From: Roseburia rectibacter
Lineage (GTDB): Bacteria; Bacillota; Clostridia; Lachnospirales; Lachnospiraceae
Direction: 5' to 3'
Length of the DNA stretch: 64,000 bases
Assembly: GCF_014287515.2 (NCBI RefSeq)
Contig: NZ_CP092473.1
Location: forward strand, 422,501 to 486,500
Part shown: in pieces, positions 5,415 to 49,189 of the stretch
Layout of the letters: every line of letters begins with the position of its first letter
Position numbering within the stretch: the first letter of the stretch is position 1
The notes under the pieces: generated by a model
The model's database searches: none
Told to the model about the DNA's origin: nothing
The model's input: the letters and a program-made list of their open reading frames with translations, nothing else
Translations under genes and position numbers: made by a program

Positions 5415-5439
5415 TTTAATGGAATAAATTACGGAAATC

Positions 5440-5448
5440 TGGTATAAT
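5440..5448 (+). promoter_or_regulatory. Extended -10 promoter of the Fic gene
   Basis: TGGTATAAT is a perfect extended -10 (TG, one base, TATAAT). No good -35 lies 16-18 nt upstream, so activity may depend on the extended element or on a protein bound to the phased repeats. It is 24 nt before the start codon. Confidence 0.65.
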
Positions 5449-5471
5449 AGAATGATGCAGGAGGGAGCAAA

Positions 5472-6572
5472 ATGATCCATGTTACACTTACGAACAATAT
5501 TCTAAAGAGGATATCACAGATTGATAAAAATAAATTCTCAATGGGCAATGTTCATATACCGAGTATTACCGCAAATAAGTTAAGAAAAAATTCCAAGAAG
5601 AAAAGTTCCTATGCATCCAATAAAATAGAGGGAAATCCGCTCACAGAGGGACAGGCAGATGCCGCAATCGAAAGTGATCCGCACAGACATTTCTTAAAGC
5701 CGGAGCAGGAAGTAAGGAATTACTTCATGGCATTGTGTCTTTTAGAAAAGAAGGTAAAAGATAAAGTCCCGTTTTCTAAGGAATTGATTCTGGAGATTCA
5801 GGCGTTAGTGGAAAAAGGAGCATCTAAGGAAAAAATTGGGCTGAGGGGAGCCATGCCGCCGGGATTTTTGTTTGCAGTGTATGATTCGGAGACGGGAAAT
5901 GCCGATTATATACCGCCGGAATATATTGATATCCCAGAACTTTTGGATGAATTGGTCAATTATGTGAATACAACAGACGATCATCCGCTGATCGTTGCTG
6001 CAGTTGTCCATTATCAACTGGTGACGATCCATCCGTTCGAAGACGGAAACGGAAGAACGGCAAGACTGATGTCCGGGTATATATTAGACCTGAATGGATA
6101 TGGGTTTTATGGGATCGGTTCTTTAGAAGAGTATTTTGCATATGATGCCGAAGAGTATTACCGATCCTTGCAGATGGGACTTCCGGCACTGTATTATTCC
6201 GGGAGGGATAATCCGCCGCATCCGGAGATATGGGTAGATTATTTCCTGCGCATGATGGAATTATATTCCGCGAAAGTATGCGAGTTGTCCAGGGAATCCA
6301 GTGAGGAGGATCTGCTTGTCGGATTGTCTTATCTGAATGCGAAGGAGAAAGAGCTGTTGGTATTTCTGATAAAAAAACATTTGTATGAATTTGCGCCGAT
6401 TGATGTCAGCAAGTTGGTGGGAGTGACCAGTAAAACGATCATAAACAGGTGTGCAAAACTCTCGGCAAATGGTTTTTTAGTGCCGGTGATCGTGAAGGAG
6501 AGAATACGCTCATACAGACTGAGCGATTTTACGAGAATGAATGAGAAAAAGATATTAAATCAGTTAAAATAG
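5472..6572 (+). CDS. Fic family protein (class II, with N-terminal inhibitory helix)
   Basis: A 366-residue Fic protein, expected to transfer AMP from ATP to a target hydroxyl. The active-site motif HPFEDGNGRTAR (residues 187-198) is complete. Upstream, residues 49-54 read SNKIEG, matching the S/T-x-x-x-E-G/N inhibitory motif; the glutamate normally blocks the ATP site. An intact inhibitory helix in the same chain marks class II and implies self-restrained activity rather than a toxin with separate antitoxin. The C-terminus (about 290-366) looks like a winged helix with an IDVSKLVGVTSKTI segment, usual for this group. The start is set by GGAGGGAGC 4-9 nt upstream. The target is unknown. Confidence 0.93.
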   Translation: MIHVTLTNNILKRISQIDKNKFSMGNVHIPSITANKLRKNSKKKSSYASNKIEGNPLTEGQADAAIESDPHRHFLKPEQEVRNYFMALCLLEKKVKDKVPFSKELILEIQALVEKGASKEKIGLRGAMPPGFLFAVYDSETGNADYIPPEYIDIPELLDELVNYVNTTDDHPLIVAAVVHYQLVTIHPFEDGNGRTARLMSGYILDLNGYGFYGIGSLEEYFAYDAEEYYRSLQMGLPALYYSGRDNPPHPEIWVDYFLRMMELYSAKVCELSRESSEEDLLVGLSYLNAKEKELLVFLIKKHLYEFAPIDVSKLVGVTSKTIINRCAKLSANGFLVPVIVKERIRSYRLSDFTRMNEKKILNQLK

Positions 6573-6580
6573 CTATTATG

Positions 6581-6647
6581 ATATGGAGATTTGTGCCCCG
6601 GCACAAACTGGATATGTGCAAAAAACAGCGCAGGAATGGGGATTAAA
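6581..6647 (+). repeat. Dispersed leader element, copy A (3' part)
   Basis: It contains hairpin 2 (TTGTGCC-CCG-GCACAA), then TGTGC-AAAAAACA-GCGCA, then GGAATGGGGATTA directly before the ATG of the DUF4317 remnant. The hairpin 1 segment seen in copies B-E is missing. Related copies lie at 18819, 31563, 35541 and 41120. Confidence 0.75.
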
Positions 6648-6956
6648 ATGATCAATCGCGACGACATGCTAGAACTCACCAGACGAATGACGCCCGCACG
6701 GGCATCCATAGACCGGATCGCAGGCGCATATTTTGATGAAGAGGGATATGTGGATGGAACATTCAATACGCATTTCTTAAAATTGTCTGCATCCGAAAGA
6801 GCCAAAAACTTAGAACTTGCAAAGACGGTGCTGATCTCAAAAACCAATGAACAGATAAAAGAATACAGGATTCCGGACGAAAAAAGAAAGCCGGGGAGTA
6901 TCTGGCAATTATTTGAGGGAATCAAAGAGACCGGATTTTTGTATCCTGCATTTAAG
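6648..6956 (+). pseudogene. DUF4317 family protein, N-terminal remnant
   Basis: The first ~103 codons (MINRDDMLELTRRMTPAR..., then DGTFNTHFLKL and KPGSIWQLFEG) match the N-terminus of DUF4317 proteins, which are about 400 residues long in Lachnospiraceae. Similarity stops near 6950 and the frame runs into unrelated sequence until a stop at 7106. The gene is therefore truncated by a deletion or insertion. A good leader (repeat copy A) still sits in front of it. The function of DUF4317 is unknown. Confidence 0.75.
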
Positions 6957-18123: not shown

Positions 18124-18209
18124 CGGAGACGGAGGGATTCGAACCCTCGTGCCCCGGAGGGCTAACGCATTTCGAGTGCGCCCCGTTATGACCACTTCGA
18201 TACGTCTCC
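18124..18209 (-). tRNA. tRNA-Ser (anticodon CGA)
   Basis: An 86-nt class II tRNA on the minus strand. The acceptor arms GGAGACG and CGTCTCC pair, the T-loop reads GGTTCGAATCC and the anticodon loop is CTCGAAA within a GCGCA/TGCGT stem. A long variable arm (GCCCTCCGGGGC) is present, as expected for serine. CCA is not encoded. Confidence 0.95.
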
Positions 18210-18419
18210 AGATATGTTTTTGCAAATACTTGATTAGTATATCATATTTTGCATGATTTGCAAGAGAAAAGTGGTTGTTGTAAATATGGGGCGTATATGC
18301 TAGTATGTTAAGAGTTTCATAGAGAAGATAATTGGTGCCGGTCGTTTTTGAAATAGAATGTGTGCAGAGTGGGTAGTTTATTGCCAAAAGCATGTGGCTG
18401 TATGCAAAAGATGCCGTAT

Positions 18420-18620
18420 TTTTAAATCAGGAACAGGCCGGTTAAAAGGGAAACAGGTGTGATTCCTGTACGATCTCGTCACTGTGATTAGGGAGTGCAG
18501 ATTCTAAAGATAAGTCACTGATGTTTTTTGCATTTTTGTGCAATGCGTTGGGAAGGCGGAATCTGTGTGATGATCTTTCAGCCAGGAAACCTGCCAGTTG
18601 TCTGGTACAGGGAAATGATT
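18420..18620 (+). promoter_or_regulatory. Cobalamin (adenosylcobalamin) riboswitch
   Basis: The conserved parts appear in order: GGTTAAAAGGGAA then GTGATTCCTGT, TCGTCACTGTGA, AGTCACTG, GTTGGGAAGGCGG, and the B12 box GCCAGGAAACCTGCC (18581-18595). A terminator at 18743 follows, so control is probably by premature termination when cobalamin is present. The regulated genes are the chelatase lipoprotein and ABC uptake system starting at 18863. The stretch 18210-18419 between the tRNA and the riboswitch shows nothing clear. Confidence 0.92.
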
Positions 18621-18818: not shown

Positions 18819-18862
18819 GATTAGTGTGAAAAACACATTTTCACACAGGAATGGAGAGTATT
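18819..18862 (+). repeat. Dispersed leader element, short copy E
   Basis: GATTAGTGTGAAAAACAC pairs into ATTTTCACAC (hairpin 1), followed directly by AGGAATGGAGAG and the start codon. The second and third hairpins of the full element are absent. It supplies the ribosome binding site for the chelatase gene. Confidence 0.65.
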
Positions 18863-20521
18863 ATGAAGAAAAGAACCATTGCGTTACTTACTACATTAGC
18901 ACTTGCCACAGGCATGGTCGCAGGATGCGGAAGTAACAACACAGCAGCAGACACAGCAACAGACACAGTTAAGACTTCTGAGGCAGCTTCAGAGAAAACA
19001 GAAGCAACAGAAACAGTAGAGAGCACAGAAGTTGACGATCAGGCAGCCGCTGATCATGTCGCAGAACTGATCGATGCGATTTATGTTCAGACAAGAAATG
19101 ACAATACAGATGCACAGTGTGCAGAAGCAAAAGAGGCATGGGATGCCCTGACAGATGCACAGAAAGAGTTAGTTTCCGGTGAAAATGCAGATTCTGATTA
19201 TTTCGGAAGAGATACAGGAGATGCCACAAAGGATGATCCTTTAAATGAGGATAATATCGGAGAGAACGAACTTTTAGTAGTAAGTTTTGGTACATCTTTC
19301 AATGACAGCCGTGCAGAAGATATCGGCGGAATTGAAAAAGCACTCGAAGCAGCATATCCGGACTGGTCTGTAAGAAGAGCCTTTACAGCACAGATCATCA
19401 TCAACCATGTTCAGGCAAGAGATGATGAGAAGATTGACAATGTGGATCAGGCATTAGAGAGAGCAGTTGATAACGGAGTAAAAAATCTTGTTGTCCAGCC
19501 GACACATCTGATGCATGGTGCAGAGTATGACGAGCTTGTAGAAGCACTTGATAATTATAAAGACAAATTTGAGACAGTAACCGTTGCAGAGCCATTACTT
19601 GGCGAAGTTGGATCAGATGCCACCGTGATCAATGAGGACAAGGCAAAAGTTGCAGAGGCGATCACAGCAGAGGCTGTAAAGACAGCAGGTTATGATTCCC
19701 TGGATGCTGCAAAAGAGGATGGTACAGCATTCGTATTTATGGGACATGGTACTTCCCATTCTGCAAAAGTAAGCTACAGCCAGATGGCAGCCCAGATGGA
19801 AGCGCTTTCCTATGATAATGTATTTATCGGAACTGTTGAGGGTGAGCCGGAAGATACATCCTGCGAAAATGTGATCGAGGCAGTAAAAGAAGCAGGTTAT
19901 ACAAAAGTTGTTTTAAGACCGCTTATGGTTGTTGCAGGAGATCATGCGAACAACGATATGGCAGGAGATGATGAGGATTCCTGGAAGAGCCAGTTTACAG
20001 CAAGCGGATATTTTGACAGCATTGATACACAGATTTCAGGACTTGGAAGAATCGACGCGATCGAGCAGATTTATGTAGATCATACAAAAGACGCAATCGA
20101 TTCTTTAGGAGCACTTGAGTCAACATCCACCACAGAGAGTACCGTTGGTACTCTCGAGGATGGAACTTACACAGCAAAGTTTGATACCGACAGCAGTATG
20201 TTCCATGTAAATGAAGCAGACGAGGGACGTGGAATACTTACTGTACAGGATGGAACAATGACGATCCATATCAGCCTTGTATCAAAGAAGATCGTAAACC
20301 TTTTCGTTGGAACAGCAGACGATGCACAGAAAGATGGCGCTGCTATTTTAGAGCCTACAACTGACACTGTGAAATACAGTGATGGAACCAGTGAGGAAGT
20401 ATACGGTTTTGATGTGCCGGTAGAAGCATTAGATGAAGAGTTTGATCTTGCAATCCTCGGCACAAAAGGCGAGTGGTACGATCATAAGGTAAGTGTTTCT
20501 GATCCACAGAAAGCAGATTAA
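18863..20521 (+). CDS. cbiK: Exported lipoprotein sirohydrochlorin cobaltochelatase (CbiK type) with C-terminal extra domain
   Basis: A 552-residue protein. Residues 1-22 form a lipoprotein signal peptide ending in lipobox VAGC, so it should be anchored outside the membrane. A linker rich in Thr/Glu follows, then a CbiK chelatase domain (about 135-420) with LLVVSFGTSFNDSRAED, the catalytic His region QPTHLMHGAEYDE and MGHGTSH. CbiK inserts cobalt into sirohydrochlorin; the usual enzyme is cytoplasmic and about 260 residues. The C-terminal 120 residues (from DGTYTAKF) resemble the N-terminal domain of the next gene's protein. It heads an operon under a cobalamin riboswitch. An exported form suggests metal or tetrapyrrole capture at the surface (inference). 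Confidence 0.88.
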   Translation: MKKRTIALLTTLALATGMVAGCGSNNTAADTATDTVKTSEAASEKTEATETVESTEVDDQAAADHVAELIDAIYVQTRNDNTDAQCAEAKEAWDALTDAQKELVSGENADSDYFGRDTGDATKDDPLNEDNIGENELLVVSFGTSFNDSRAEDIGGIEKALEAAYPDWSVRRAFTAQIIINHVQARDDEKIDNVDQALERAVDNGVKNLVVQPTHLMHGAEYDELVEALDNYKDKFETVTVAEPLLGEVGSDATVINEDKAKVAEAITAEAVKTAGYDSLDAAKEDGTAFVFMGHGTSHSAKVSYSQMAAQMEALSYDNVFIGTVEGEPEDTSCENVIEAVKEAGYTKVVLRPLMVVAGDHANNDMAGDDEDSWKSQFTASGYFDSIDTQISGLGRIDAIEQIYVDHTKDAIDSLGALESTSTTESTVGTLEDGTYTAKFDTDSSMFHVNEADEGRGILTVQDGTMTIHISLVSKKIVNLFVGTADDAQKDGAAILEPTTDTVKYSDGTSEEVYGFDVPVEALDEEFDLAILGTKGEWYDHKVSVSDPQKAD

Positions 20522-31562: not shown

Positions 31563-31686
31563 TAAGATGCGCGAATGTAGCGCAGAAAATAGGGTTAGTG
31601 TGAAAAATACATTTTTCACATGTAGAATTTGTGCTTATGCACAAACCTGAGATGCGATGGACGGCAGCGCAGGAATGGAGATTAAT
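31563..31686 (+). repeat. Dispersed leader element, longest copy B
   Basis: In order it holds TGCGC-GAATGTA-GCGCA, hairpin 1 (AGTGTGAAAAATACATTTTT followed by CACA), hairpin 2 (TTTGTGCTTATGCACAAAC), then GAGATGCGATGG to CAGCGCAGGAATGGAGATTA directly before the dehydratase ATG. It lies inside the gntP-dehydratase unit and supplies the ribosome binding site. Confidence 0.8.
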
Positions 31687-33474
31687 ATGGAATTAAGAAG
31701 TCAGAAAGTAAGAGAACTTGCACCGGAGATGGATCCGCTCCGCATGGGTATGGGATGGAAAGAGGAGGAGCTTTCCAAACCGCAGATCATCATAGAGAGC
31801 ACTTATGGAAACAGTCATCCGGGTTCAAGTCATTTAAATATTTTTGTGGAAGAAGCAGTAAAAGGTGTTGACGAAAACGGCGGAAAAGCAGCGCGTTATT
31901 ATGCGACAGATATGTGTGATGGCATGTCACAGGGACATGATGGAATCAATTATTCCTTAGCACACCGAGATGCGATTACCAACCTTGTGGAAGCACAGGC
32001 GAACGCAACAACTTTTGACGGCGGAGTGTTTATCGCAAGCTGTGATAAAGCAATGCCGGCGATGCTTATGAGTATCGGTCGTTTAAAAGAAATGAGTGCG
32101 ATCGTTGTGACCGGCGGAGTTATGGAAGCAACCGTTGTAAAACCGGAATATGTAGAAAATGATCCGGGCTGCAAGATCAATGAGCTTTTAACTTTAGAGC
32201 AGATCGGAAAATTCAGCGCACAGTATGAGCGTGGTGAGATTCCGGAAGAACAGCTTCGTTATTACAAGCACAATGCATGTCCGAGCTGTGGCGCATGTTC
32301 CTTTATGGGAACTGCTTCAACGATGCAGGTTATGGCGGAGGCACTCGGACTGATGCTTCCGGGAACAGCGCTGATGCCGGCGACTGCACCGGAGTTAAAG
32401 CAGGCTGCTTATGATGCGGGAAAACAGTTGATGAAATTAGTCGAGATGGGCATTGCTGCAAAAGATATCGTTACGATGGAAAGCCTTGAGAATGCGATCA
32501 TGGTACATGCAGCGATTTCAGGTTCTACCAATGCGGTTATGCACATTCCGGCAATCGCTCACGAATTTGGTTTTGAGATTGATGCAGATACATTTGACAG
32601 AATGCACCGCGGTGCGCATTATCTGTTGAACATCCGCCCGGCAGGAGACTGGCCGGCACAGTATTTTTACTATGCAGGCGGTGTGCCAAGAGTTATGGAA
32701 GAGATCAAGAGCATGCTGCATCTTGATGTGATGACAGTGACCGGAAAGACACTTGGCGAAAACTTAGAAGAGTTAAAGAAAAACGGTTTTTACGAACACT
32801 GTGATGCAATTTTAAAAGAAAAATCAGCACTGATCGGAAAAGAAATCAAACGTACCGATATCATCGCAGACTTTGACCATGCGATCGGTACGGATGGAAG
32901 TATTGCGATTCTGCGCGGCAACCTTGCACCGGAGGGAGCAGTCATCAAACACACTGCCTGTCCGAAAGAAATGTTCCATGCAAGATTAAATGCAAAACCT
33001 TATGACAGTGAGGAAGAAGCGATCGATGCGATCTTAAAGGGTAAAGTAGTTCCGGGGGATGCTGTATTTATCCGTTACGAGGGACCGAGAGGCAGCGGTA
33101 TGCCGGAGATGTTCTACACCGGCGAGGCAATCTGTTCTGACCCGAAACTTGCAGCCAGCGTTGCACTGATCACAGACGGACGTTTTTCCGGCGCATCCAG
33201 AGGACCGGTCGTAGGACATGTATCTCCGGAGGCAGCAGCCGGCGGCCCGATCGCATTTGTGGAAGAGGGAGATCTCATTGAACTTGATGTTGCAAACCGC
33301 CGTCTTGCGATCGTAGGTGTGAAAGGTGAGGAAAAGACGGAGGAAGAAATAGCACAGATTTTAGAGGAGCGGAAAAAGAACTGGAAAGGATTTACCAGCA
33401 AATATAAACGTGGTCTGTTAAAACTGTATGCACAGCACGCGACCAGTGCGATGAAGGGTGCTTATATGGACTAA
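31687..33474 (+). CDS. IlvD/Edd family dehydratase (dihydroxy-acid or sugar-acid dehydratase)
   Basis: A 595-residue Fe-S dehydratase. Cluster-ligand cysteines are seen in TDMCDGMSQGHDG, FIASCDKAMPAML and CPSCGACSFMGTAS. The C-terminal barrel has VALITDGRFSGASRGPVVGH. The start is the ATG after GGAATGGAG. IlvD makes 2-keto acids for branched-chain amino acids; relatives dehydrate gluconate, xylonate or similar. There is no ilv gene nearby and the partner is GntP under a FadR-type regulator, so a sugar-acid dehydratase yielding a 2-keto-3-deoxy acid is more likely (inference). Confidence 0.9.
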   Translation: MELRSQKVRELAPEMDPLRMGMGWKEEELSKPQIIIESTYGNSHPGSSHLNIFVEEAVKGVDENGGKAARYYATDMCDGMSQGHDGINYSLAHRDAITNLVEAQANATTFDGGVFIASCDKAMPAMLMSIGRLKEMSAIVVTGGVMEATVVKPEYVENDPGCKINELLTLEQIGKFSAQYERGEIPEEQLRYYKHNACPSCGACSFMGTASTMQVMAEALGLMLPGTALMPATAPELKQAAYDAGKQLMKLVEMGIAAKDIVTMESLENAIMVHAAISGSTNAVMHIPAIAHEFGFEIDADTFDRMHRGAHYLLNIRPAGDWPAQYFYYAGGVPRVMEEIKSMLHLDVMTVTGKTLGENLEELKKNGFYEHCDAILKEKSALIGKEIKRTDIIADFDHAIGTDGSIAILRGNLAPEGAVIKHTACPKEMFHARLNAKPYDSEEEAIDAILKGKVVPGDAVFIRYEGPRGSGMPEMFYTGEAICSDPKLAASVALITDGRFSGASRGPVVGHVSPEAAAGGPIAFVEEGDLIELDVANRRLAIVGVKGEEKTEEEIAQILEERKKNWKGFTSKYKRGLLKLYAQHATSAMKGAYMD

Positions 33475-35540: not shown

Positions 35541-35640
35541 AAGAAGCGGCGGAATGGAGATTAGTGTGAAAAATACATTTTTCACATGCAAGATTTAACT
35601 TGTGATGCGCTTAAAAGCAGCGCAGGAATGGAGATTAATT
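35541..35640 (+). repeat. Dispersed leader element, copy C
   Basis: GGAATGGAGATTAGTGTGAA leads into hairpin 1 (TGTGAAAAATACATTTTTCA). Hairpin 2 is eroded to AGATTTAACTTG. Hairpin 3 (ATGCGCTTAAAAGCAGCGCA) is followed by GGAATGGAGATTA and the nagA start. The copy begins right after the nagB stop, so it separates two genes of one pathway. Confidence 0.8.
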
Positions 35641-36783
35641 ATGATCATCAAAAATGCAATGGTTTATACATCAGACCACAGGTTTGAAAAGAAGGATATC
35701 AGAATTAAAGACGAGCGCATTGCAGAGATTGCAGAGCATGGTGCACTGGAAGCCACAGAGGAGGATGTGGTTGATGGAGCGGAAATGTATGCAATACCGG
35801 GACTTGTGGATATCCATTTCCATGGAGCGGTAGGTTATGATTTTTGTCAGGCATCGAAAGAGGAATTGTTAAAAATAGCGGAGTATGAAGCAAAAAACGG
35901 TGTTCTTGCAATCTGTCCGGCAACCATGTCTTATAATGAAGAAATTTTAGGACATATCATGGATAAGGCAGCGGACTATCAGGAAGATACGGGAGCAGAT
36001 TTAGTCGGCATCAATATGGAAGGACCATTTATCAATATAAAAAAAGCCGGTGCACAGAACCCGGAATACATCATGCCGGCGGATAAAGAAATGTTTCTGC
36101 GTCTGCAGGAAAGAAGCGGCGGACTGATCAGGCTGGTAGACATCGCACCGGAGGGAGAGGGCGCCATGGAATTTATTGAGCAGTGCCATGACAAAGTAAA
36201 AATCTCCATTGCACATACCTGTTGTGATTATGATACGGCGTGTAAGGCATTAAAAAAAGGTGCAAGCCACATGACACACCTCTATAATGCCATGCCTGGA
36301 ATCAATCACAGGGAACCGGGACCAGTCATAGCGGCACTTGAGGCGGGGGCAGAGGTGGAGCTGATCGCAGACGGCATCCATATCCATCCGGCGATGGTGA
36401 GAACCACATTCCGCATCTTCGGGGCAGATAAAGTGATACTGATTTCTGACAGCATGGAAGCAACAGGACTTTTAGACGGAGATTACCAGCTTGGTGGACA
36501 GGATGTGACCGTAAAAGGGAAAAAAGCAGTCCTGACAAAAGATCCGGGTGTCATTGCGGGCAGTGTCACAAATCTGTTTGACTGCATGAAAAACTGTGTG
36601 CAGAACATGGGAATCCCACTTGAAGTGGCAGTGTTAGCGGCAACGGAAAATCCGGCAGGAGCCATTGGTGTGGAGGAAGATTATGGTAAGATCGCAGTTG
36701 GCAATTATGGAAATGTGCTGTTGCTGGATCAGAAATTAAACATCAGAAATATCATTCAAAAAGGTAGAATAATGTCAATATAA
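35641..36783 (+). CDS. nagA: N-acetylglucosamine-6-phosphate deacetylase
   Basis: A 380-residue amidohydrolase making glucosamine-6-phosphate and acetate. Metal and substrate motifs are in order: VDIHFHGAVGYDF, GINMEGPFIN, ISIAHTCCDYDTA, MTHLYNAMPGINHREPG, LIADGIHIHP and LISDSMEATGL with the catalytic Asp. The start is the ATG behind the repeat-borne GGAATGGAG; a frame extension 39 nt upstream lies inside the repeat. It works with NagB and the HTH-kinase. Confidence 0.96.
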   Translation: MIIKNAMVYTSDHRFEKKDIRIKDERIAEIAEHGALEATEEDVVDGAEMYAIPGLVDIHFHGAVGYDFCQASKEELLKIAEYEAKNGVLAICPATMSYNEEILGHIMDKAADYQEDTGADLVGINMEGPFINIKKAGAQNPEYIMPADKEMFLRLQERSGGLIRLVDIAPEGEGAMEFIEQCHDKVKISIAHTCCDYDTACKALKKGASHMTHLYNAMPGINHREPGPVIAALEAGAEVELIADGIHIHPAMVRTTFRIFGADKVILISDSMEATGLLDGDYQLGGQDVTVKGKKAVLTKDPGVIAGSVTNLFDCMKNCVQNMGIPLEVAVLAATENPAGAIGVEEDYGKIAVGNYGNVLLLDQKLNIRNIIQKGRIMSI

Positions 36784-38569: not shown

Positions 38570-38595
38570 TAGATACGGATGATGGTGTAAACTTG

Positions 38596-38697
38596 GGATT
38601 CTATGTAATTTAGGATTACATGTAATTTAGGCTTACATATAATTTGGGATTACATGTAATTTGAGATTACATGTAATTTGAGATTACATGCAGTTTG
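38596..38697 (+). repeat. Six tandem 17-bp repeats with palindromic core
   Basis: Units start at 38596, 38613, 38630, 38647, 38664 and 38681, consensus GGATTACATGTAATTTG. Three units (2, 4 and 5) contain the perfect palindrome ATTACATGTAAT; the outer and third units carry one to three changes. The array lies 27 nt after the pgi stop and before its terminator, so it is transcribed as 3' UTR. Confidence 0.9.
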
Positions 38698-38724
38698 TCA
38701 GTGAATACAATTTCAGATGAAGTA

Positions 38725-38944: not shown

Positions 38945-39997
38945 ATGGAACAGGAACAGCAGACACCGCACAAGAGGCGTGTACGTTACAAGGGAAAATA
39001 CCCCAAGAAGTTTGAAGAGAAATATAAAGAACTTCAGCCGGAAAAATATCAGGATACGATCGAACATGTCATCAAAAAGGGAAATACGCCGGCAGGAATG
39101 CATATTTCCATTATGGTGCAGGAAATCCTTGATACCTTAAAGATCCAGCCGGGCGAGACCGGTTTTGATGCTACGTTAGGATATGGAGGGCATACAAAAG
39201 CAATGCTTGCCTGTCTGAACGGACAGGGGCATATCTATGCAACCGATGTTGACCCGGAGGAGTCCGCCAAGACGAAAAAGAGACTGGAAGAACTCGGGTA
39301 CGGAGAGGATATCCTGACGATCCGGCTGCAGAATTTCTGTACGATCGATGAGATCGCAAAAGAAGTCGGCGGTTTTGATTTCATTTTAGCGGATCTGGGT
39401 GTATCTTCCATGCAGATCGACAATCCAAAGCGTGGATTTTCATTTAAGGTGGATGGCCCACTTGACCTGCGCTTAAATCAGGAAGCAGGAATCAGCGCGG
39501 CAGAACGTCTTGATACCATCACAAGGGAGGAACTTGCCGGAATGCTCTATGAAAATTCCGATGAACCTTACTGTGAGGAGCTTGCGAAGGCGATCACCGA
39601 CGAGATACGAAAAGGCAACCGGATCGACACGACGACAAAATTGCGCGAAGTGATTGAAAAAACACTGGATTTTCTGCCGGAAAAAGAAAAAAAAGACACG
39701 ATCAAAAAGACCTGTCAGCGTACATTTCAGGCACTCCGCATCGATGTGAACCGTGAGTTTGAGGTCTTATATGAATTCATGGAAAAACTGCCAGACGCCT
39801 TAAAACCAGGTGGACGTGTGGCGATCCTCACGTTTCATTCCGGGGAGGATAAACTGGTCAAAAAAGCATTAAAAGAAGGCTATCGGGCAGGAATTTATGC
39901 AGATTATTCAAAAGATGTTGTAAGACCGAGTGCACAGGAATGTGCACAGAATGGAAGAGCGCGGTCTACGAAGATGCGCTGGGCAGTCCGGGCATAG
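38945..39997 (+). CDS. RsmH-like 16S rRNA (cytosine-N4) methyltransferase, orphan copy
   Basis: A 350-residue SAM-dependent methyltransferase of the MraW/RsmH family. SAM-binding and family motifs are FDATLGYGGHTKAML, YATDVDPEE, FDFILADLGVSSMQIDNP, RGFSFKVDGPLDLRLN and RTFQALRIDVNREFE. The first ~40 residues are a basic extension absent from standard RsmH. True rsmH normally heads the mraZ-rsmH-ftsL division cluster; none of those genes is here. It may therefore be a second, diverged paralogue. Whether it acts on C1402 is unknown. Confidence 0.88.
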   Translation: MEQEQQTPHKRRVRYKGKYPKKFEEKYKELQPEKYQDTIEHVIKKGNTPAGMHISIMVQEILDTLKIQPGETGFDATLGYGGHTKAMLACLNGQGHIYATDVDPEESAKTKKRLEELGYGEDILTIRLQNFCTIDEIAKEVGGFDFILADLGVSSMQIDNPKRGFSFKVDGPLDLRLNQEAGISAAERLDTITREELAGMLYENSDEPYCEELAKAITDEIRKGNRIDTTTKLREVIEKTLDFLPEKEKKDTIKKTCQRTFQALRIDVNREFEVLYEFMEKLPDALKPGGRVAILTFHSGEDKLVKKALKEGYRAGIYADYSKDVVRPSAQECAQNGRARSTKMRWAVRA

Positions 39998-40228: not shown

Positions 40229-41119
40229 ATGAGTAATATAAATAATACAAAAGAGCAGTATGAATTAAATCGTGAACTGGCACAGATGTTAAAGGGTGGT
40301 GTCATCATGGATGTCACAAATGCCGGGCAGGCAAAGATCGCAGAGGCGGCAGGAGCATGTGCGGTTATGGCATTAGAGCGGATCCCGGCGGATATCAGAG
40401 CAGCGGGCGGCGTGGCAAGAATGAGTGATCCGAAGCTGATCAAAGAGATCCAGGGTGCAGTTTCCATTCCGGTTATGGCAAAATGCCGAATCGGTCATTT
40501 TGCGGAGGCACAGATCTTACAGGCATTAGAAATCGACTACATCGACGAGAGTGAAGTGCTTTCTCCGGCAGATGATGTTTACCACATTGACAAGACAAAA
40601 TTTCAGGTGCCGTTTGTCTGCGGAGCAAAAAATTTAGGCGAGGCACTCAGAAGAATCGCTGAGGGCGCAGCGATGATCCGTACCAAAGGGGAGCCGGGAA
40701 CCGGTGATGTGGTTCAGGCGGTACATCATATGAGACTGATCAACTCCGAGATCGCGGCAGTTGCGGCAAAGCGTGAGGATGAACTTTTTGAGGCGGCAAA
40801 ACAGCTTCAGGTTCCATATGATCTTGTAAAATATGTGCATGACCACAAAAAACTTCCGGTTGTAAACTTTGCGGCAGGCGGTGTGGCAACTCCGGCAGAT
40901 GCAGCATTGATGATGCAGCTTGGTGCCGAGGGCGTATTTGTAGGTTCGGGTATTTTTAAATCCGGCAATCCGGCAAAACGTGCAGCAGCAATCGTACAGG
41001 CAGTGACCAATTACAATGATGCAAAACTGATTGCAGAGTTATCTGAAGATTTAGGAGAAGCGATGGTTGGCATCAACGAGGATGAGATACAGCTGCTTAT
41101 GGCAGAGCGTGGGAAATAA
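40229..41119 (+). CDS. pdxS: Pyridoxal 5'-phosphate synthase subunit PdxS
   Basis: A 296-residue TIM-barrel synthase that makes PLP from ribose-5-phosphate, glyceraldehyde-3-phosphate and ammonia. Key lysines lie in [13 protein letters not shown] and [31 protein letters not shown] and FVGSGIFKS bind phosphate. The length and sequence are typical. AAAAGGAGAAAG precedes the start. PdxT, its glutaminase partner, is the next gene. Confidence 0.97.
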
Positions 41120-41229
41120 ATTGCTCAGAAATGGAGATAAGTGTGAAAAATAAGATTTTTCACACGCAGGATTTATGCTTACGCACAAACTTGAGATGCG
41201 CAAAAAACAGCGCAAGAATGGAGATTATC
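41120..41229 (+). repeat. Dispersed leader element, copy D
   Basis: GAAATGGAGATAAGTGTGAA leads into hairpin 1 (TGTGAAAAATAAGATTTTTCACA), then hairpin 2 (TTATGCTTACGCACAAAC), then hairpin 3 (ATGCGCAAAAAACAGCGCA) and AGAATGGAGATTATC before the pdxT ATG. It fills the whole gap between pdxS and pdxT. Confidence 0.8.
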
Positions 41230-41832
41230 ATGTCAGAAAAAGTATCAATCGGAATCCTTGCGGTGCAGGGCGCATTTGCGGAGCATCAGGCGATGCTTGA
41301 CGGGCTTGGTGCGGATACATTCCTGATCCGTCAGAAAAAGGATTTGGAAGAGGCTGTGCAGAATGGCAGACTGCAGGGGATCGTGCTTCCCGGAGGTGAA
41401 AGCACGGTACAGGGAAAACTGCTTAGAGACCTTGGCATGTCTGACCAGTTAAAAGAACTGATCGAAGCGGGTACACCGGTGCTTGCGACCTGCGCAGGGC
41501 TGATCCTTTTAGCAGAGCGTGTTTCCAACGATGACAGAGCGTATTTAAAAACCCTGCCGGTAAGCGTGAAACGCAACGCCTATGGTAGACAGCTCGGAAG
41601 CTTTGTCACGGATGCTGAGATCACACACGTTGGAACCTACCGGATGAATTTTATCCGTGCACCATACATTGATGAAATTTTAGATCCGCAGGTAGAGACA
41701 TTGGCGATAGTGGATGGCGATACGGTAGCAGTCCGCTACAAAAACCAGCTTGCGCTCAGTTTTCACCCGGAAGTGAGTGAAGATGCAAGGGTGCACGCGT
41801 ATTTCTTAAATGAAATCGTGCAGGGTGTATAA
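41230..41832 (+). CDS. pdxT: Pyridoxal 5'-phosphate synthase glutaminase subunit PdxT
   Basis: A 200-residue class I glutaminase giving ammonia to PdxS. Motifs: GILAVQGAFAEH, LPGGESTVQGKLL, the nucleophile Cys in VLATCAGLILLAERV, and the His-Glu pair in LSFHPEVSED. The start MSEKVS is placed after the repeat-borne AGAATGGAG; longer frames run through the repeat. Confidence 0.96.
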   Translation: MSEKVSIGILAVQGAFAEHQAMLDGLGADTFLIRQKKDLEEAVQNGRLQGIVLPGGESTVQGKLLRDLGMSDQLKELIEAGTPVLATCAGLILLAERVSNDDRAYLKTLPVSVKRNAYGRQLGSFVTDAEITHVGTYRMNFIRAPYIDEILDPQVETLAIVDGDTVAVRYKNQLALSFHPEVSEDARVHAYFLNEIVQGV

Positions 41833-42174
41833 GAAAGAAAAAATTGGCGAAGTGAACGGAAAATGAAAGAGATTCATCCATTTTTACCGAAGTCTAATGG
41901 AGATTTAGAAGAGAATGGGCGAAAGCGTTATAAGGGATGAAGCCAATAGCCCACGAAAATGAAAAAATCAGGGCGAAAACAGGAGAACAGAAGATGGTTT
42001 CGCCCGAAAAGACTGTGAAAATGTTAAAAAGAAAGAAGAAATGGGCGAAAGGGACTTGAACAAAGGAACTTTCGCCCATTATATATTGAGGATAATATCG
42101 GTGTAGAAATGGTAATTAGTGTGAAAGCGTTTTTTCATGAAAAACCACCGAAAGAAAGGAGAAAAAATGAACTG
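41833..42174 (+). other. Gene-free interval with GGGCGAAA inverted repeats
   Basis: GGGCGAAA occurs at 41917, 41971 and 42043, and its complement TTTCGCCC at 41998 and 42070. Two hairpins result: 41971-42005 (8-bp stem) and 42041-42079 (11-bp perfect stem ATGGGCGAAAG/CTTTCGCCCAT with a 17-nt loop). No T-run follows either, so these are not typical terminators. A short fragment of the dispersed leader element (ATTAGTGTGAAA) lies at 42104-42137. Confidence 0.7.
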
Positions 42175-46936: not shown

Positions 46937-47083
46937 AATTATATCGGCTCAAAATCCCCCCACAAGACTGTTCATAACAAAAAAGTGTGTTATAATCAAA
47001 AACAGGAAATAATTTGAATACAAAAAGAAATAGATAACACAAAAAACAGCAAAAATAGAAGCAAAAAAGAAGGTGTGACACAC

Positions 47084-49135
47084 ATGACAATGCAGGAAGC
47101 GGTCATAAAAAATATTGATACGGATTACTCGTACCAGCTTGCAAAACGGATGGAGCAGTTTCGCTCAAACGAAAAACTCGGTTACCGTCCTGCGGGTTCG
47201 AAGGCAGAATTCCTGACAGGGGAAATGTTAAAGGATGAGATGCAAAAACTTGGACTGTCGGATGTATGTAAAAATGCGGTTACCGTGGATGGCTGGGAGT
47301 TTAAAAATGCGGAGCTTACGTTTGAAACGAAAGAGGGAAAAAGGCATACCGCATTGCTCGGGGCATATCAGACAGATTTTGTAACGGACGGTGAGCAGGC
47401 ATTTTCCCTGATGTATCTTGGAAAGGGAACAGAAGCGGATTATGAAGGGAAAGATGTAACCGGAAAACTGGTGTTAGTGGATATCAACCAGAGAGATGAG
47501 TGGTGGATCAATTATCCGGTTTATCAGGCACATTTAAAAGGTGCGGCGGCAGTGATCGCTGTGCAGTGTGGCGGTTATGGAGAAGTCGATGCGAAGGCAC
47601 TCAACGCACAGGATATCGCCGGACCGGAGGATGCACCGGCATTTTCCATCTCAAGGGAGGATGCTGCATTATTGCGGGAACTGCTGGATGGAGAGAAAGA
47701 AGCAACCGTATGGTTGAAAGCCGACAGCCGGGTAAAACGTGACTGCACGACTTATAACATTTCAGGCTGTATTCCGGGAAAACACCCGGAGCGCATGGTA
47801 TTGTTGTCTGCACACTATGACTCCTATTTCAGTGGATTTCAAGATGATAATACGGCAGTCGCCATGATGTTTGGCATTGCAAAAACGCTGATTGAAAGCG
47901 GATTCAAGCCGAACAACACGATCGTGTTCTGTGCGATGGCGGCAGAGGAATGGGGCGTTGTTGATTCCAACTTTGACTGGTCGACCGGAGCTTACGAGCA
48001 GATTTTTACCGCACATCCGGAATGGGTCGGAAAAGTGATCGCAGATCTGAATTTTGAGCTGCCGGCGCTGGCACACGGCACGCGTGCAAGAATCCGCTGC
48101 TGTTATGAATATGTACATTATATAAAAGAATATTTAGACGGACTTCCGGAACTGACAAAGGCTTATCCTGAGATGACAAGCATGACGGCACCGATCGAAA
48201 CCTGGTCAGATGATTTTTCGATGGCAATCGCAGGAATCCCTTCCATGGTCAATGATTTTACCGGCGGAAGTTTCATGGAAACACATTACCATTCCCAGTT
48301 TGATAATGATGATTTTTATGATGAGGCGGTTTACCGGCTGCACCATGAGCTGTTCACACTGCTGATCTTAGCACTGGATGACACGGCAGTTGTGCCGCTT
48401 GATTTTACACCGGTTTTAGAGCGTGTGATCGCGGGAGACAGCAGGATTGTGACCGCTGCGGAAGAAATATTGTCACAGACAAAGAAAAATCAGATTGGGC
48501 AGGAACAGATTGCCACAGCCGCCAAAAAATTAATTCAGGTAACAGAAGAGGCACAGAAAAAAGAAAAACAGTCTTACGACCAGACTGCCGCAATCAATGC
48601 CCGCTACCACATGCTTCTTGCAAATGGTAATATGGAAGAGGCAGAGCAGCTTTTTGTGGAAAACAGAAGCAGGGAGGCAAAACTGCTTGCAAAGTTTAAG
48701 CAGGAGCAGGATTGTTTTGTCCGTATTGACTGGTATGGAGAGGTATTTTTCCCACACGAGATCCTGTGGAAAAATATTGGCTTGCTGCAGGATACCATAG
48801 ATGCTTTAGAACAGTCTGATGTGGATAAAGCACTGGAAAAAATTTATCAGGTGGATAACAATGCATATGCGTTTATGTTTGATGAATATGTCTACCGCCA
48901 TTTTACGGATTATGTGTTCAACCAGCCGAAGGAGCGTTTAAAATGGGGTTATGGCCGGTTGTTAGAGCATGAGGATCTCTACCATGTGGTAAAATGTCTG
49001 CTGAAGAAAAGAAAAGAGGCGGACACGGACTATCGGGAAGAATTGCATTACCTGAAGGAATGTTATAATAAACAGACCGGACGTTTATTGGGTACGTTAA
49101 AAGAAATCAGTCAGACAATACAGGAAATGTTTTGA
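47084..49135 (+). CDS. M28 family zinc peptidase with PA domain
   Basis: A 683-residue aminopeptidase-like protein without a signal peptide, so probably cytoplasmic. A PA insert (about residues 95-215, VYQAHLKGAAAVIAVQCGG) precedes the catalytic M28 domain: LLSAHYDSYFSGFQDDNTA (His, Asp), MAAEEWG (Glu-Glu), ADLNFE and METHYHSQFDNDD (His). The C-terminal ~240 residues are helical and unlike the core. The start uses AGAAGG 10 nt upstream of an ATG; a GTG 9 nt earlier is possible. Confidence 0.88.
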   Translation: MTMQEAVIKNIDTDYSYQLAKRMEQFRSNEKLGYRPAGSKAEFLTGEMLKDEMQKLGLSDVCKNAVTVDGWEFKNAELTFETKEGKRHTALLGAYQTDFVTDGEQAFSLMYLGKGTEADYEGKDVTGKLVLVDINQRDEWWINYPVYQAHLKGAAAVIAVQCGGYGEVDAKALNAQDIAGPEDAPAFSISREDAALLRELLDGEKEATVWLKADSRVKRDCTTYNISGCIPGKHPERMVLLSAHYDSYFSGFQDDNTAVAMMFGIAKTLIESGFKPNNTIVFCAMAAEEWGVVDSNFDWSTGAYEQIFTAHPEWVGKVIADLNFELPALAHGTRARIRCCYEYVHYIKEYLDGLPELTKAYPEMTSMTAPIETWSDDFSMAIAGIPSMVNDFTGGSFMETHYHSQFDNDDFYDEAVYRLHHELFTLLILALDDTAVVPLDFTPVLERVIAGDSRIVTAAEEILSQTKKNQIGQEQIATAAKKLIQVTEEAQKKEKQSYDQTAAINARYHMLLANGNMEEAEQLFVENRSREAKLLAKFKQEQDCFVRIDWYGEVFFPHEILWKNIGLLQDTIDALEQSDVDKALEKIYQVDNNAYAFMFDEYVYRHFTDYVFNQPKERLKWGYGRLLEHEDLYHVVKCLLKKRKEADTDYREELHYLKECYNKQTGRLLGTLKEISQTIQEMF

Positions 49136-49189
49136 TATAATAAAAGCAATCGCTCAGACAATACAGGAAATGTTTTGATACAATAAAAG
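49111..49189 (+). repeat. 36-bp direct duplication at the peptidase 3' end
   Basis: Copy 1 (49111-49146) and copy 2 (49154-49189) differ at one base and are 43 bp apart. Copy 1 encodes the last residues QTIQEMF and the stop; copy 2 is non-coding and supplies part of the leader of the next gene. It looks like a recent tandem duplication. Confidence 0.9.

What the first reader, a model, noticed from the sequence alone, without database searches (positions are those of the whole stretch)
31563..31686. A dispersed three-hairpin leader element inserted between operon partners and carrying the next gene's ribosome binding site
Copies lie at 6581-6647, 18819-18862 (short), 31563-31686, 35541-35640 and 41120-41229, with a fragment at 42104-42137. 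The shared order is GTGTGAAAAA-N-TTTTTCACA, then TGTGCTTATGCACA, then TGCGC-N8-GCGCA, then AGGAATGGAGATTA and the start codon. Three copies sit inside functional pairs (gntP/dehydratase, nagB/nagA, pdxS/pdxT). It behaves like an intercistronic mobile repeat that replaced the native ribosome binding site. It could stabilise mRNA or set the expression ratio of partners.
Basis: seen in the sequence. Interest (0 to 1): 0.78.

Follow-up and report, generated by a model that had tools for sequence, protein, structure and literature searches.

The report
Hairpin element inserted at ribosome-binding sites
Gut bacteria of the Roseburia group carry dozens of copies of a small hairpin DNA element that sits between a gene's ribosome-binding site and its start codon and brings its own replacement ribosome-binding site, so it seems able to spread without silencing the genes it interrupts.

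Summary
A covariance model from 20 copies finds five of the six places in the window (E 8e-23 to 1e-4); the sixth, the "fragment", is not significant. The nearest held genome, G001, has 54 copies at 31 bits or more. The element is patchy: 26 of 98 relatives, 27 of 200 family genomes.

Anatomy: hairpin 1, hairpin 2, hairpin 3, then a strong Shine-Dalgarno (SD), mostly 6 nt from the start codon. All three hairpins show compensatory changes (46 cells in 21 of 27 pairs). Two sister genomes (~95% identical) give three filled/empty sites at base resolution: insertion lies 2 nt before an ATG. Most copies have a second SD just upstream: 39 of 54, and 85 of 101 in a search that used hairpin 1 alone. 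That outer SD is less often intact next to divergent copies; the element's own SD is intact in all 59 tested.

So this is a dispersed, most probably mobile, element that splits a ribosome-binding site and supplies a new one; operon partners are only some of its targets. What moves it is unknown. Eight literature searches found no description.

The parts
41138..41232 (+). full copy, pdxS/pdxT junction: H1 41141-41165, H2, H3, own SD, pdxT start at 41230
   Evidence: R1 113.9 bits; fold; also present at the same site in G001 (L235)
41127..41137 (+). outer SD, AGAAATGGAGA, left of the pdxT copy
   Evidence: sequence; same in the G001 flank
31595..31689 (+). full copy, gntP/dehydratase junction, start codon at 31687
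   Evidence: R1 89 bits; G001 has a copy here too
31566..31594 (+). remnant resembling the hairpin 3/tail part of an older copy, directly upstream of the full copy
   Evidence: sequence; G001 shows GCAGCGCAGGAATGGAGG at this place
35561..35643 (+). copy with most of hairpin 2 missing, nagB/nagA junction, nagA start at 35641
   Evidence: R1 73.4 bits; absent from the orthologous site in G001
35541..35560 (+). tail-like sequence ending GCGGCGGAATGGAGA left of the nagA copy (older tail or outer SD)
   Evidence: family D2 of direct repeats
18821..18865 (+). short form: hairpin 1 plus SD only, before a CbiK-domain gene starting at 18863
   Evidence: R1 30.9 bits, E 1e-4; absent in G001, which has AATAAGGAGAGCATTATG
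6588..6650 (+). partial copy: hairpins 2 and 3 plus SD, before a DUF4317 gene starting at 6648
   Evidence: 81% identical to 41170-41232 (D8); R1 53.9 bits over 6560-6650
42104..42137 (+). claimed fragment (hairpin-1-like); not confirmed
   Evidence: overlapping model match 13.6 bits, E 0.57; the sequence is also in G001

Best explanation
It is a small non-autonomous mobile element (about 80-120 nt, plus H1-only short forms of about 45-50 nt). It inserts, in one orientation, into the spacer between a Shine-Dalgarno sequence and a start codon, with the right junction about 2 nt before the ATG. Its right end is a strong SD held mostly 6 nt from the start codon, so after insertion translation of the host gene is expected to start from the element's SD, while the native SD is stranded upstream and erodes. 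The left arm of hairpin 1 usually puts stop codons in two of three frames, which can terminate an upstream gene that overlaps the site. Shown: dispersal, presence/absence at orthologous sites, junction positions, compensatory evolution of the hairpins, conserved inner SD with outer SD less often intact in divergent copies, clustering of copies by genome. Inferred: that it moves by a trans-acting enzyme, that ribosomes use the inner SD, and that the hairpins serve mobility and/or keep the ribosome-binding site clear.
For: Sister genomes G007 and G044: the 12 copies fetched stand for 9 sites; 5 are filled in both, 3 are filled in G007 and cleanly empty in G044, and 1 (G044 C28) has no counterpart found in G007. 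Empty sites read GGGAGAAAAAAGTATG, GGAGGGAAACTATG and TAACAAAATATG; insertion follows AAA, 2 nt before ATG. Window versus G001: nagA copy and 18.8-kb short copy in the window only, pdxT and dehydratase copies in both, the 6.6-kb partial copy without counterpart. fabD: of 30 loci only G001's has an R1 match at the gene start. Outer SD: dG <= -5 in 39 of 54 G001 flanks against 4-15 of 54 in five control windows; 34 of 41 against 7-12 of 41 in other genomes. Search that ignored the tail (hairpin 1 pattern only): of 101 non-palindromic matches, 85 have an SD just upstream (control 14), and 78 have an SD plus start within 160 nt in the element's direction against 10 in reverse. Outer SD in 21 of 25 long copies at 85 bits or more but 9 of 17 below (rho -0.46, p 0.002); own SD in 42 of 42 long and 17 of 17 short copies. 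Own SD core ends exactly 6 nt from the start in 45 of the 59 copies where a core was found; native genes 5 of 41. Compensation: 46 double-changed cells, 21 of 27 pairs, 0 of 500 shuffles. Copies cluster by genome: 24 changes against 38.1 shuffled, 0 of 200.
Against: No transposase, excision product or movement was observed; presence/absence could in principle be loss. [quoted passage not shown] Left/right triplets match more than permuted in G001 (0.60 vs 0.51, p 0.005) but not in G059 or G007/G044, so a target duplication is unproven. 15 of 54 G001 flanks lack a good outer SD. The 18.8-kb short copy does not fit: the native GGAGAG appears on its right, not its left. At adk, G016 (31 bits) and weakly G012 (27 bits) also match at the G001 site, which could be an old shared insertion or repeated targeting. 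Palindromes TTAG...CTAA, which look like another repeat, also have an upstream SD in 10 of 20 cases (control 1) without a direction towards starts (8 against 8). R1 contains the tail and start codon, so start-codon counts from R1 hits are partly by construction; one search is the test free of this.
Confidence: 0.82

Rival explanations
1. Cis-regulatory RNA: a shared leader that controls a regulon by binding a protein, metabolite or small RNA.
For: Strong covariation in all hairpins; on the sense strand of the gene, right at the ribosome-binding site.
Against: Downstream proteins in G001 have no common theme by inspection; Pfam on eight of them gives acyl transferase, HPr, lactate/malate dehydrogenase, ketopantoate hydroxymethyltransferase, adenylate kinase, ArgJ, DnaA, Phe-tRNA synthetase (the element before the last is a weak match, 27 bits). 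fabD has it only in G001 of 30 loci. No Rfam match. The SD is not more hidden than in native genes: openness 0.636 against 0.572, p 0.17.
Confidence: 0.1
2. Insertion is only directed to ATG-like (or loosely chosen) sites, and the link with real ribosome-binding sites is made by selection: mainly copies before true start codons survive, because the element supplies an SD.
For: The G007 C28 copy sits before a non-start ATG without a proper SD. Six of 62 G001 copies have no ORF of 50 codons or more at the end, though one of these was interrupted by an insertion sequence.
Against: Harmless sites far from genes should then be common, and copies upstream of an intact native SD as well; both are the minority.
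Confidence: 0.3
3. Derivative of IS200/IS605 or of the REP/RAYT system, moved as single-stranded DNA by a Y1 transposase that recognises the hairpins.
For: Hairpins near both ends, one orientation, insertion after a short motif, tandem copies inserted at the tail of another copy (L120).
Against: Y1_Tnp (PF01797) was not found in G059, G041, G044, G007, G012 and G047, all with 10 or more copies, and is present in genomes without R1 matches such as G004.
Confidence: 0.1
4. Leader-peptide module: the outer SD drives a short ORF from the GTG/TTG in hairpin 1 that runs through the element.
For: Outer SD to GTG spacing is plausible; that frame is open to the start codon in 26 of 38 G001 copies and 63 of 100 others, more than the other frames (10 and 6; 47 and 23).
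Against: No phase constraint relative to the gene (11/12/15 and 26/30/44); hairpin 1 length varies by single bases; the outer SD is less often intact in divergent copies.
Confidence: 0.07

Closest known systems
BOX elements of Streptococcus pneumoniae (passages of PMC3049150 seen)
   Same: Small modular interspersed repeats with predicted RNA hairpins, an optional middle module, clusters and nested insertions, judged parasitic
   Different: Per that paper BOX has terminal inverted repeats and target-site duplications; I saw nothing there tying it to SD-start spacers. Sequence relation was not tested directly
REP/REPIN sequences with RAYT Y1 transposases (search listing only; rest recalled)
   Same: High-copy extragenic palindromes, non-autonomous, lineage-specific amplification
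   Different: No Y1 transposase found in several copy-rich genomes; oriented with the gene and fixed at the start codon
TAACTGA direct repeats of marine Beggiatoaceae (passages of PMC4679880 seen)
   Same: 169 repeat sets in one genome, mostly just upstream of start codons of genes without a functional pattern
   Different: Tandem heptamers that overlap the expected ribosome-binding site and mostly lack an SD, whereas this element has three hairpins and brings a strong SD
MITEs (recalled; review PMC10969869 in search listing only)
   Same: Short, non-autonomous, dispersed, hairpin-rich
   Different: Ends are not inverted repeats of each other; left end is hairpin 1, right end is an SD; duplication of the target not established

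Membership tests
REP/REPIN-RAYT or IS200/IS605 derivative | Y1 transposase (PF01797) present in carrier genomes | tested here: not met
   0 matches in G059, G041, G044, G007, G012, G047, all with 10 or more copies; these assemblies are drafts of 40 to 280 contigs
REP/REPIN-RAYT or IS200/IS605 derivative | hairpins near the element ends | tested here: met
   covariation of H1, H2, H3
MITE of a DDE transposase | terminal inverted repeats | tested here: not met
   by inspection, ends read GTGTG/GAGTG at the left and SD-AAA/TTA at the right in aligned copies
MITE of a DDE transposase | target-site duplication | tested here: inconclusive
   triplet match p 0.005 in 30 G001 copies, no signal in 15 G059 and 9 G007/G044 copies; p 0.089 with a looser measure in 34 G001 copies
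Retroelement / group II intron derivative | reverse transcriptase in carrier genomes | tested here: not met
   PF00078 not found in G059, G041, G044, G024, G047 among 15 genomes searched; present in G001 (12), G005, G055, G007, G012
Known Rfam RNA (riboswitch, leader, sRNA) | match at the gathering score | tested here: not met
   window scan and 41100-41260 at relaxed threshold; best sub-threshold E 1.8
Small interspersed non-autonomous mobile repeat (general kind) | many copies, presence/absence at orthologous sites in close relatives | tested here: met
Small interspersed non-autonomous mobile repeat (general kind) | movement observed | not testable with these tools
   needs time-resolved or experimental data

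The most novel reading that the evidence does not exclude
A class of mobile element whose integration is directed to translation-start DNA (SD-spacer-ATG) and which carries stop codons plus a portable ribosome-binding site, so that insertion is transparent to protein synthesis: the translational counterpart of the way introns and inteins hide from their host genes. The targeting might be coupled to the initiation region itself (mRNA, R-loop or ribosome).
Probability: 0.4. Interest if true: 0.88.

Novelty: new variant of a known kind. Interest (0 to 1): 0.78.

Why it matters
Insertions in a ribosome-binding site normally damage a gene. This element is found exactly there, also in front of genes that are usually essential (dnaA at 43 bits, adk at 88, fabD at 120 in G001), and replaces the signal it breaks. 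If it works as inferred it offers a natural, recurring experiment in swapping ribosome-binding sites in common gut bacteria, and it poses a sharp question: what recognises an SD-to-ATG spacer. It also suggests care with start codons and 5' leaders in Lachnospiraceae, since several mechanical ORF calls in the window begin inside the element (31657, 35602, 41131).

Tried and rejected
Leader-peptide coding: rejected as main explanation. Y1 transposase and reverse transcriptase as movers: not found in several copy-rich genomes. Sequestered or unusually open SD: no significant difference from native genes although the leader is more structured, mean -34.5 against -24.8 kcal/mol. Target-site duplication: inconclusive. 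Carriage by phages or plasmids: no match with one copy as query, and no exact pattern match in viral contigs. The apparent tail-only copy at G001 3064888 (L280) proved to be an element interrupted by an insertion sequence, not a copy inside a gene. Palindromes TTAG...CTAA (20 of 121 matches) were counted apart.

Limits of the counts. The 62 G001 copies include matches as weak as E 0.045; the pheS copy is one of them. In one search the start finder sometimes took the ATG inside the SD region as the gene start; its counts are rough. Counts are capped by the tool at 42, 22 and 150 scored candidates a genome. The alignment was fitted to the model, which favours its structure. In alignments A1, A2 and A4 the number of further pair types did not exceed shuffles (84, 252 and 357 of 500). 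Native controls are ORFs of 150 codons or more whose start was chosen by the best SD.

Full report
What was asked.

Is it there. Yes. Twenty copies (window and relatives) were aligned and made into a covariance model, R1. In the window it finds five of the six places: 41138-41232, 31595-31689, 35561-35643, 6560-6650 and, more weakly, 18821-18865 (E 1e-4). The sixth (42104-42137) is not supported (E 0.57). Folding one G001 copy (L010) gives the three hairpins with the SD unpaired apart from a weak pairing that includes the AUG; the pdxT copy does so in its centroid, with extra long-range pairs in its minimum-energy fold; a stretch with tandem copies (L120) folds differently. The full architecture is present only at 31595 and 41138.

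Where else. The window's own genome is not held. The nearest genome, G001, shares 28% of sampled 31-mers. Its single contig is 4,493,348 bases, which I recall as Roseburia intestinalis L1-82; no call names it. G036, of the same genus, has 3,592,125 bases, the size given for Roseburia hominis A2-183 in an abstract seen in a search listing (PMC4645204), and two G060 contigs have the lengths of named Roseburia sp. contigs. R1 finds 84 matches in G001 and 59 in G059 at E <= 1. I fetched the best 62 of G001 (27 bits or more) with flanks; 54 of these reach 31 bits. In a sample of 98 relatives, 26 have a match at E <= 0.01, 25 of them in the genus. A second model, R2, from other Lachnospiraceae finds 27 of 200 family genomes at E <= 0.001, one of them G001.

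Structure is selected. On 64 copies from the window and G001, 94.1% of pair cells are standard pairs, 21 of 27 pairs have a change on both sides, 46 cells are doubly changed; no shuffle of 500 reached these. The alignment was fitted to the model. Independent alignments of other types agree in part: 11 doubly changed cells in A2 and 11 in A4, 0 of 500 shuffles each, while the number of pairs with a double change was reached in 59 and 12 of 500. Between species hairpin 1 alternates GTGTG/CACAC, GATTG/CAATC, GAGTG/CACTC and GGTTG/CAACC. G-U pairs occur in all three helices, which suits RNA, but a role as single-stranded DNA is not excluded.

Position. In G001, 56 of 62 copies are followed by an ORF of at least 50 codons starting at or near the model's end, 52 of them exactly there; 27 of 62 have a same-strand upstream ORF ending within 60 nt. 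In other genomes 41 of 41 copies fetched end at or near the start codon of such an ORF. Because R1 includes tail and start codon, the fair test is the hairpin-1-only pattern: of 101 non-palindromic matches with enough flank, 78 have an SD and the start of an ORF within 160 nt downstream in the element's direction, 10 in the reverse direction. So the element is tied to starts and to one orientation.

Two SDs. Immediately left of the element lies a second SD. In G001 39 of 54 left flanks pair with the anti-SD at -5 kcal/mol or better, against 4 to 15 of 54 in five windows further upstream; the GGAG/GAGG core peaks 4-5 nt before the model start. In other genomes it is 34 of 41 against 7-12, and in the hairpin-1-only set 85 of 101 against 14. 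The 20 palindromic matches (TTAG...CTAA) also show it, 10 against 1, but without direction: a start in 8 forward and 8 reverse. The outer SD is found in 21 of 25 long copies of 85 bits or more but in 9 of 17 below (rho -0.46, p 0.002); in short copies there is no such trend (p 0.89). The element's own SD passes the threshold in 42 of 42 long and 17 of 17 short copies. The own SD core ends exactly 6 nt before the start codon in 45 of the 59 G001 copies in which a core was found; in 41 native genes of a G001 region the spacing is spread from 2 to 18 nt with 5 at 6. Joining the flanks of 71 copies gives what looks like an ordinary ribosome-binding site, with A directly left of the junction in 94%.

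Filled and empty sites. Window against G001: the nagA copy and the 18.8-kb short copy are absent from G001, the pdxT and dehydratase copies are shared, the 6.6-kb partial copy has no counterpart. At fabD only G001 of 30 loci has an R1 match at the gene start; at adk G001 has one (88 bits), and G016 (31 bits) and weakly G012 (27 bits) do too, out of 30 loci. Best are the sisters G007 and G044, 93-96% identical over these loci. Twelve copies fetched represent nine sites: five are filled in both, three are filled in G007 and empty in G044, and one G044 copy has no counterpart found in G007, which is 84% complete. The junctions are base-exact: fabZ (FabA-like domain) reads GGAGGGAAACTATG when empty and GAAGGGAAA | element | GTATG when filled. 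In all three the insertion follows AAA and lies 2 nt before an ATG. At two of the three the upstream ORF runs through the empty site, and the element supplies its new stop codon; in 39 of 54 G001 copies two of the three frames have a stop in the first 15 nt of hairpin 1. One of these two (G007 C28) is not a gene start: the ATG is out of frame with alanine racemase, which starts downstream, and there is no proper SD. This counts against strict SD-targeting and for a DNA motif (A-rich, then ATG) with a strong preference for starts.

Amplification. On a tree of 74 copies the genome labels need 24 changes (least possible 22), shuffled 38.1, as low in 0 of 200; few columns, many open forks, and the rows are best matches of each genome. 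Copies also sit in tandem, one at the tail of another (L120), and a loose pattern finds an older tail directly before 9 of 62 G001 copies. This is what repeated insertion at a self-regenerated site would give.

What moves it. Unknown. Y1 transposases were found in 22 of 62 genus genomes but not in copy-rich G059, G041, G044, G007, G012, G047. Reverse transcriptases were not found in G059, G041, G044, G024 and G047 among 15 genomes tested. No match in phage or plasmid records with one copy as query, none for exact patterns in viral contigs. A 3-base target duplication is hinted at in G001 only.

What it does. Inferred: after insertion the gene is translated from the element's SD. The leader is more stable than native leaders (-34.5 against -24.8 kcal/mol) yet the SD is no less open (0.636 against 0.572, p 0.17; 34 copies, 45 controls). 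A regulatory role is possible but the downstream genes are diverse, and a conserved leader peptide is not supported, although the frame from the hairpin 1 GTG is open more often than the other two.

Literature. Eight answered full-text searches in the open-access library showed no description of such an element in their listings; subscription papers are not held. Passages were read in PMC3049150 (BOX, RUP, SPRITE), PMC4679880 (TAACTGA repeats), PMC8040213 (structured RNAs of human microbiomes: 'Roseburia' and 'Lachnospir' do not occur in its main text) and PMC12306157 (REP survey: likewise). Supplementary tables were not read, so a bare entry there cannot be excluded.

Verdict. A real, abundant, structured, most probably mobile repeat of Lachnospiraceae that splits ribosome-binding sites and provides a new one. 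General kind known (small interspersed repeats); placement and content appear new as far as these searches reach.

Noticed in passing
38573-38718: Tandem copies of a 17-nt unit (AATTTAGGATTACATGT-like, spacing 17) upstream of the gene at 38945 (D1).
   Followed up: no
49098-49183: 43-nt direct repeat, 91% identical, across the end of the ORF 47075-49135 and the following gap (D17).
   Followed up: no
18419-18612: Cobalamin riboswitch upstream of the CbiK-domain gene whose start carries the short element; the tRNA at 18124-18209 is on the other strand.
   Followed up: partly
41850-42100: Region with repeated GGCGAAAG / CTTTCGCCC motifs between pdxT and a MatE gene; G001 holds about 300 extra bases here.
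   Followed up: no
5439-6644: A Fic-domain gene and its surroundings are missing from the aligned G001 region.
   Followed up: no
L053, L082, L090, L121, L127, L144, L151: Perfect palindromes TTAGTGTGAAAA...TTTTCACACTAA, several beside a similar stretch containing CGCCCTCAAAATTCT, in uncultured Clostridium/Clostridia genomes; probably another repeat family. Half of such palindromes have an SD upstream, so kinship is open.
   Followed up: partly
L280 (G001 3064888): A copy of the element interrupted in its SD by an insertion sequence that is also present near 237678, 294462 and 300000.
   Followed up: partly
L340, L341: adk of G016 and G047 has a differently sequenced hairpin leader with SD at the place where G001 adk carries the element; R1 recognises the G016 one.
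   Followed up: partly
L103: A contig labelled Muribaculaceae carries the Lachnospiraceae-type element; likely a binning error.
   Followed up: no
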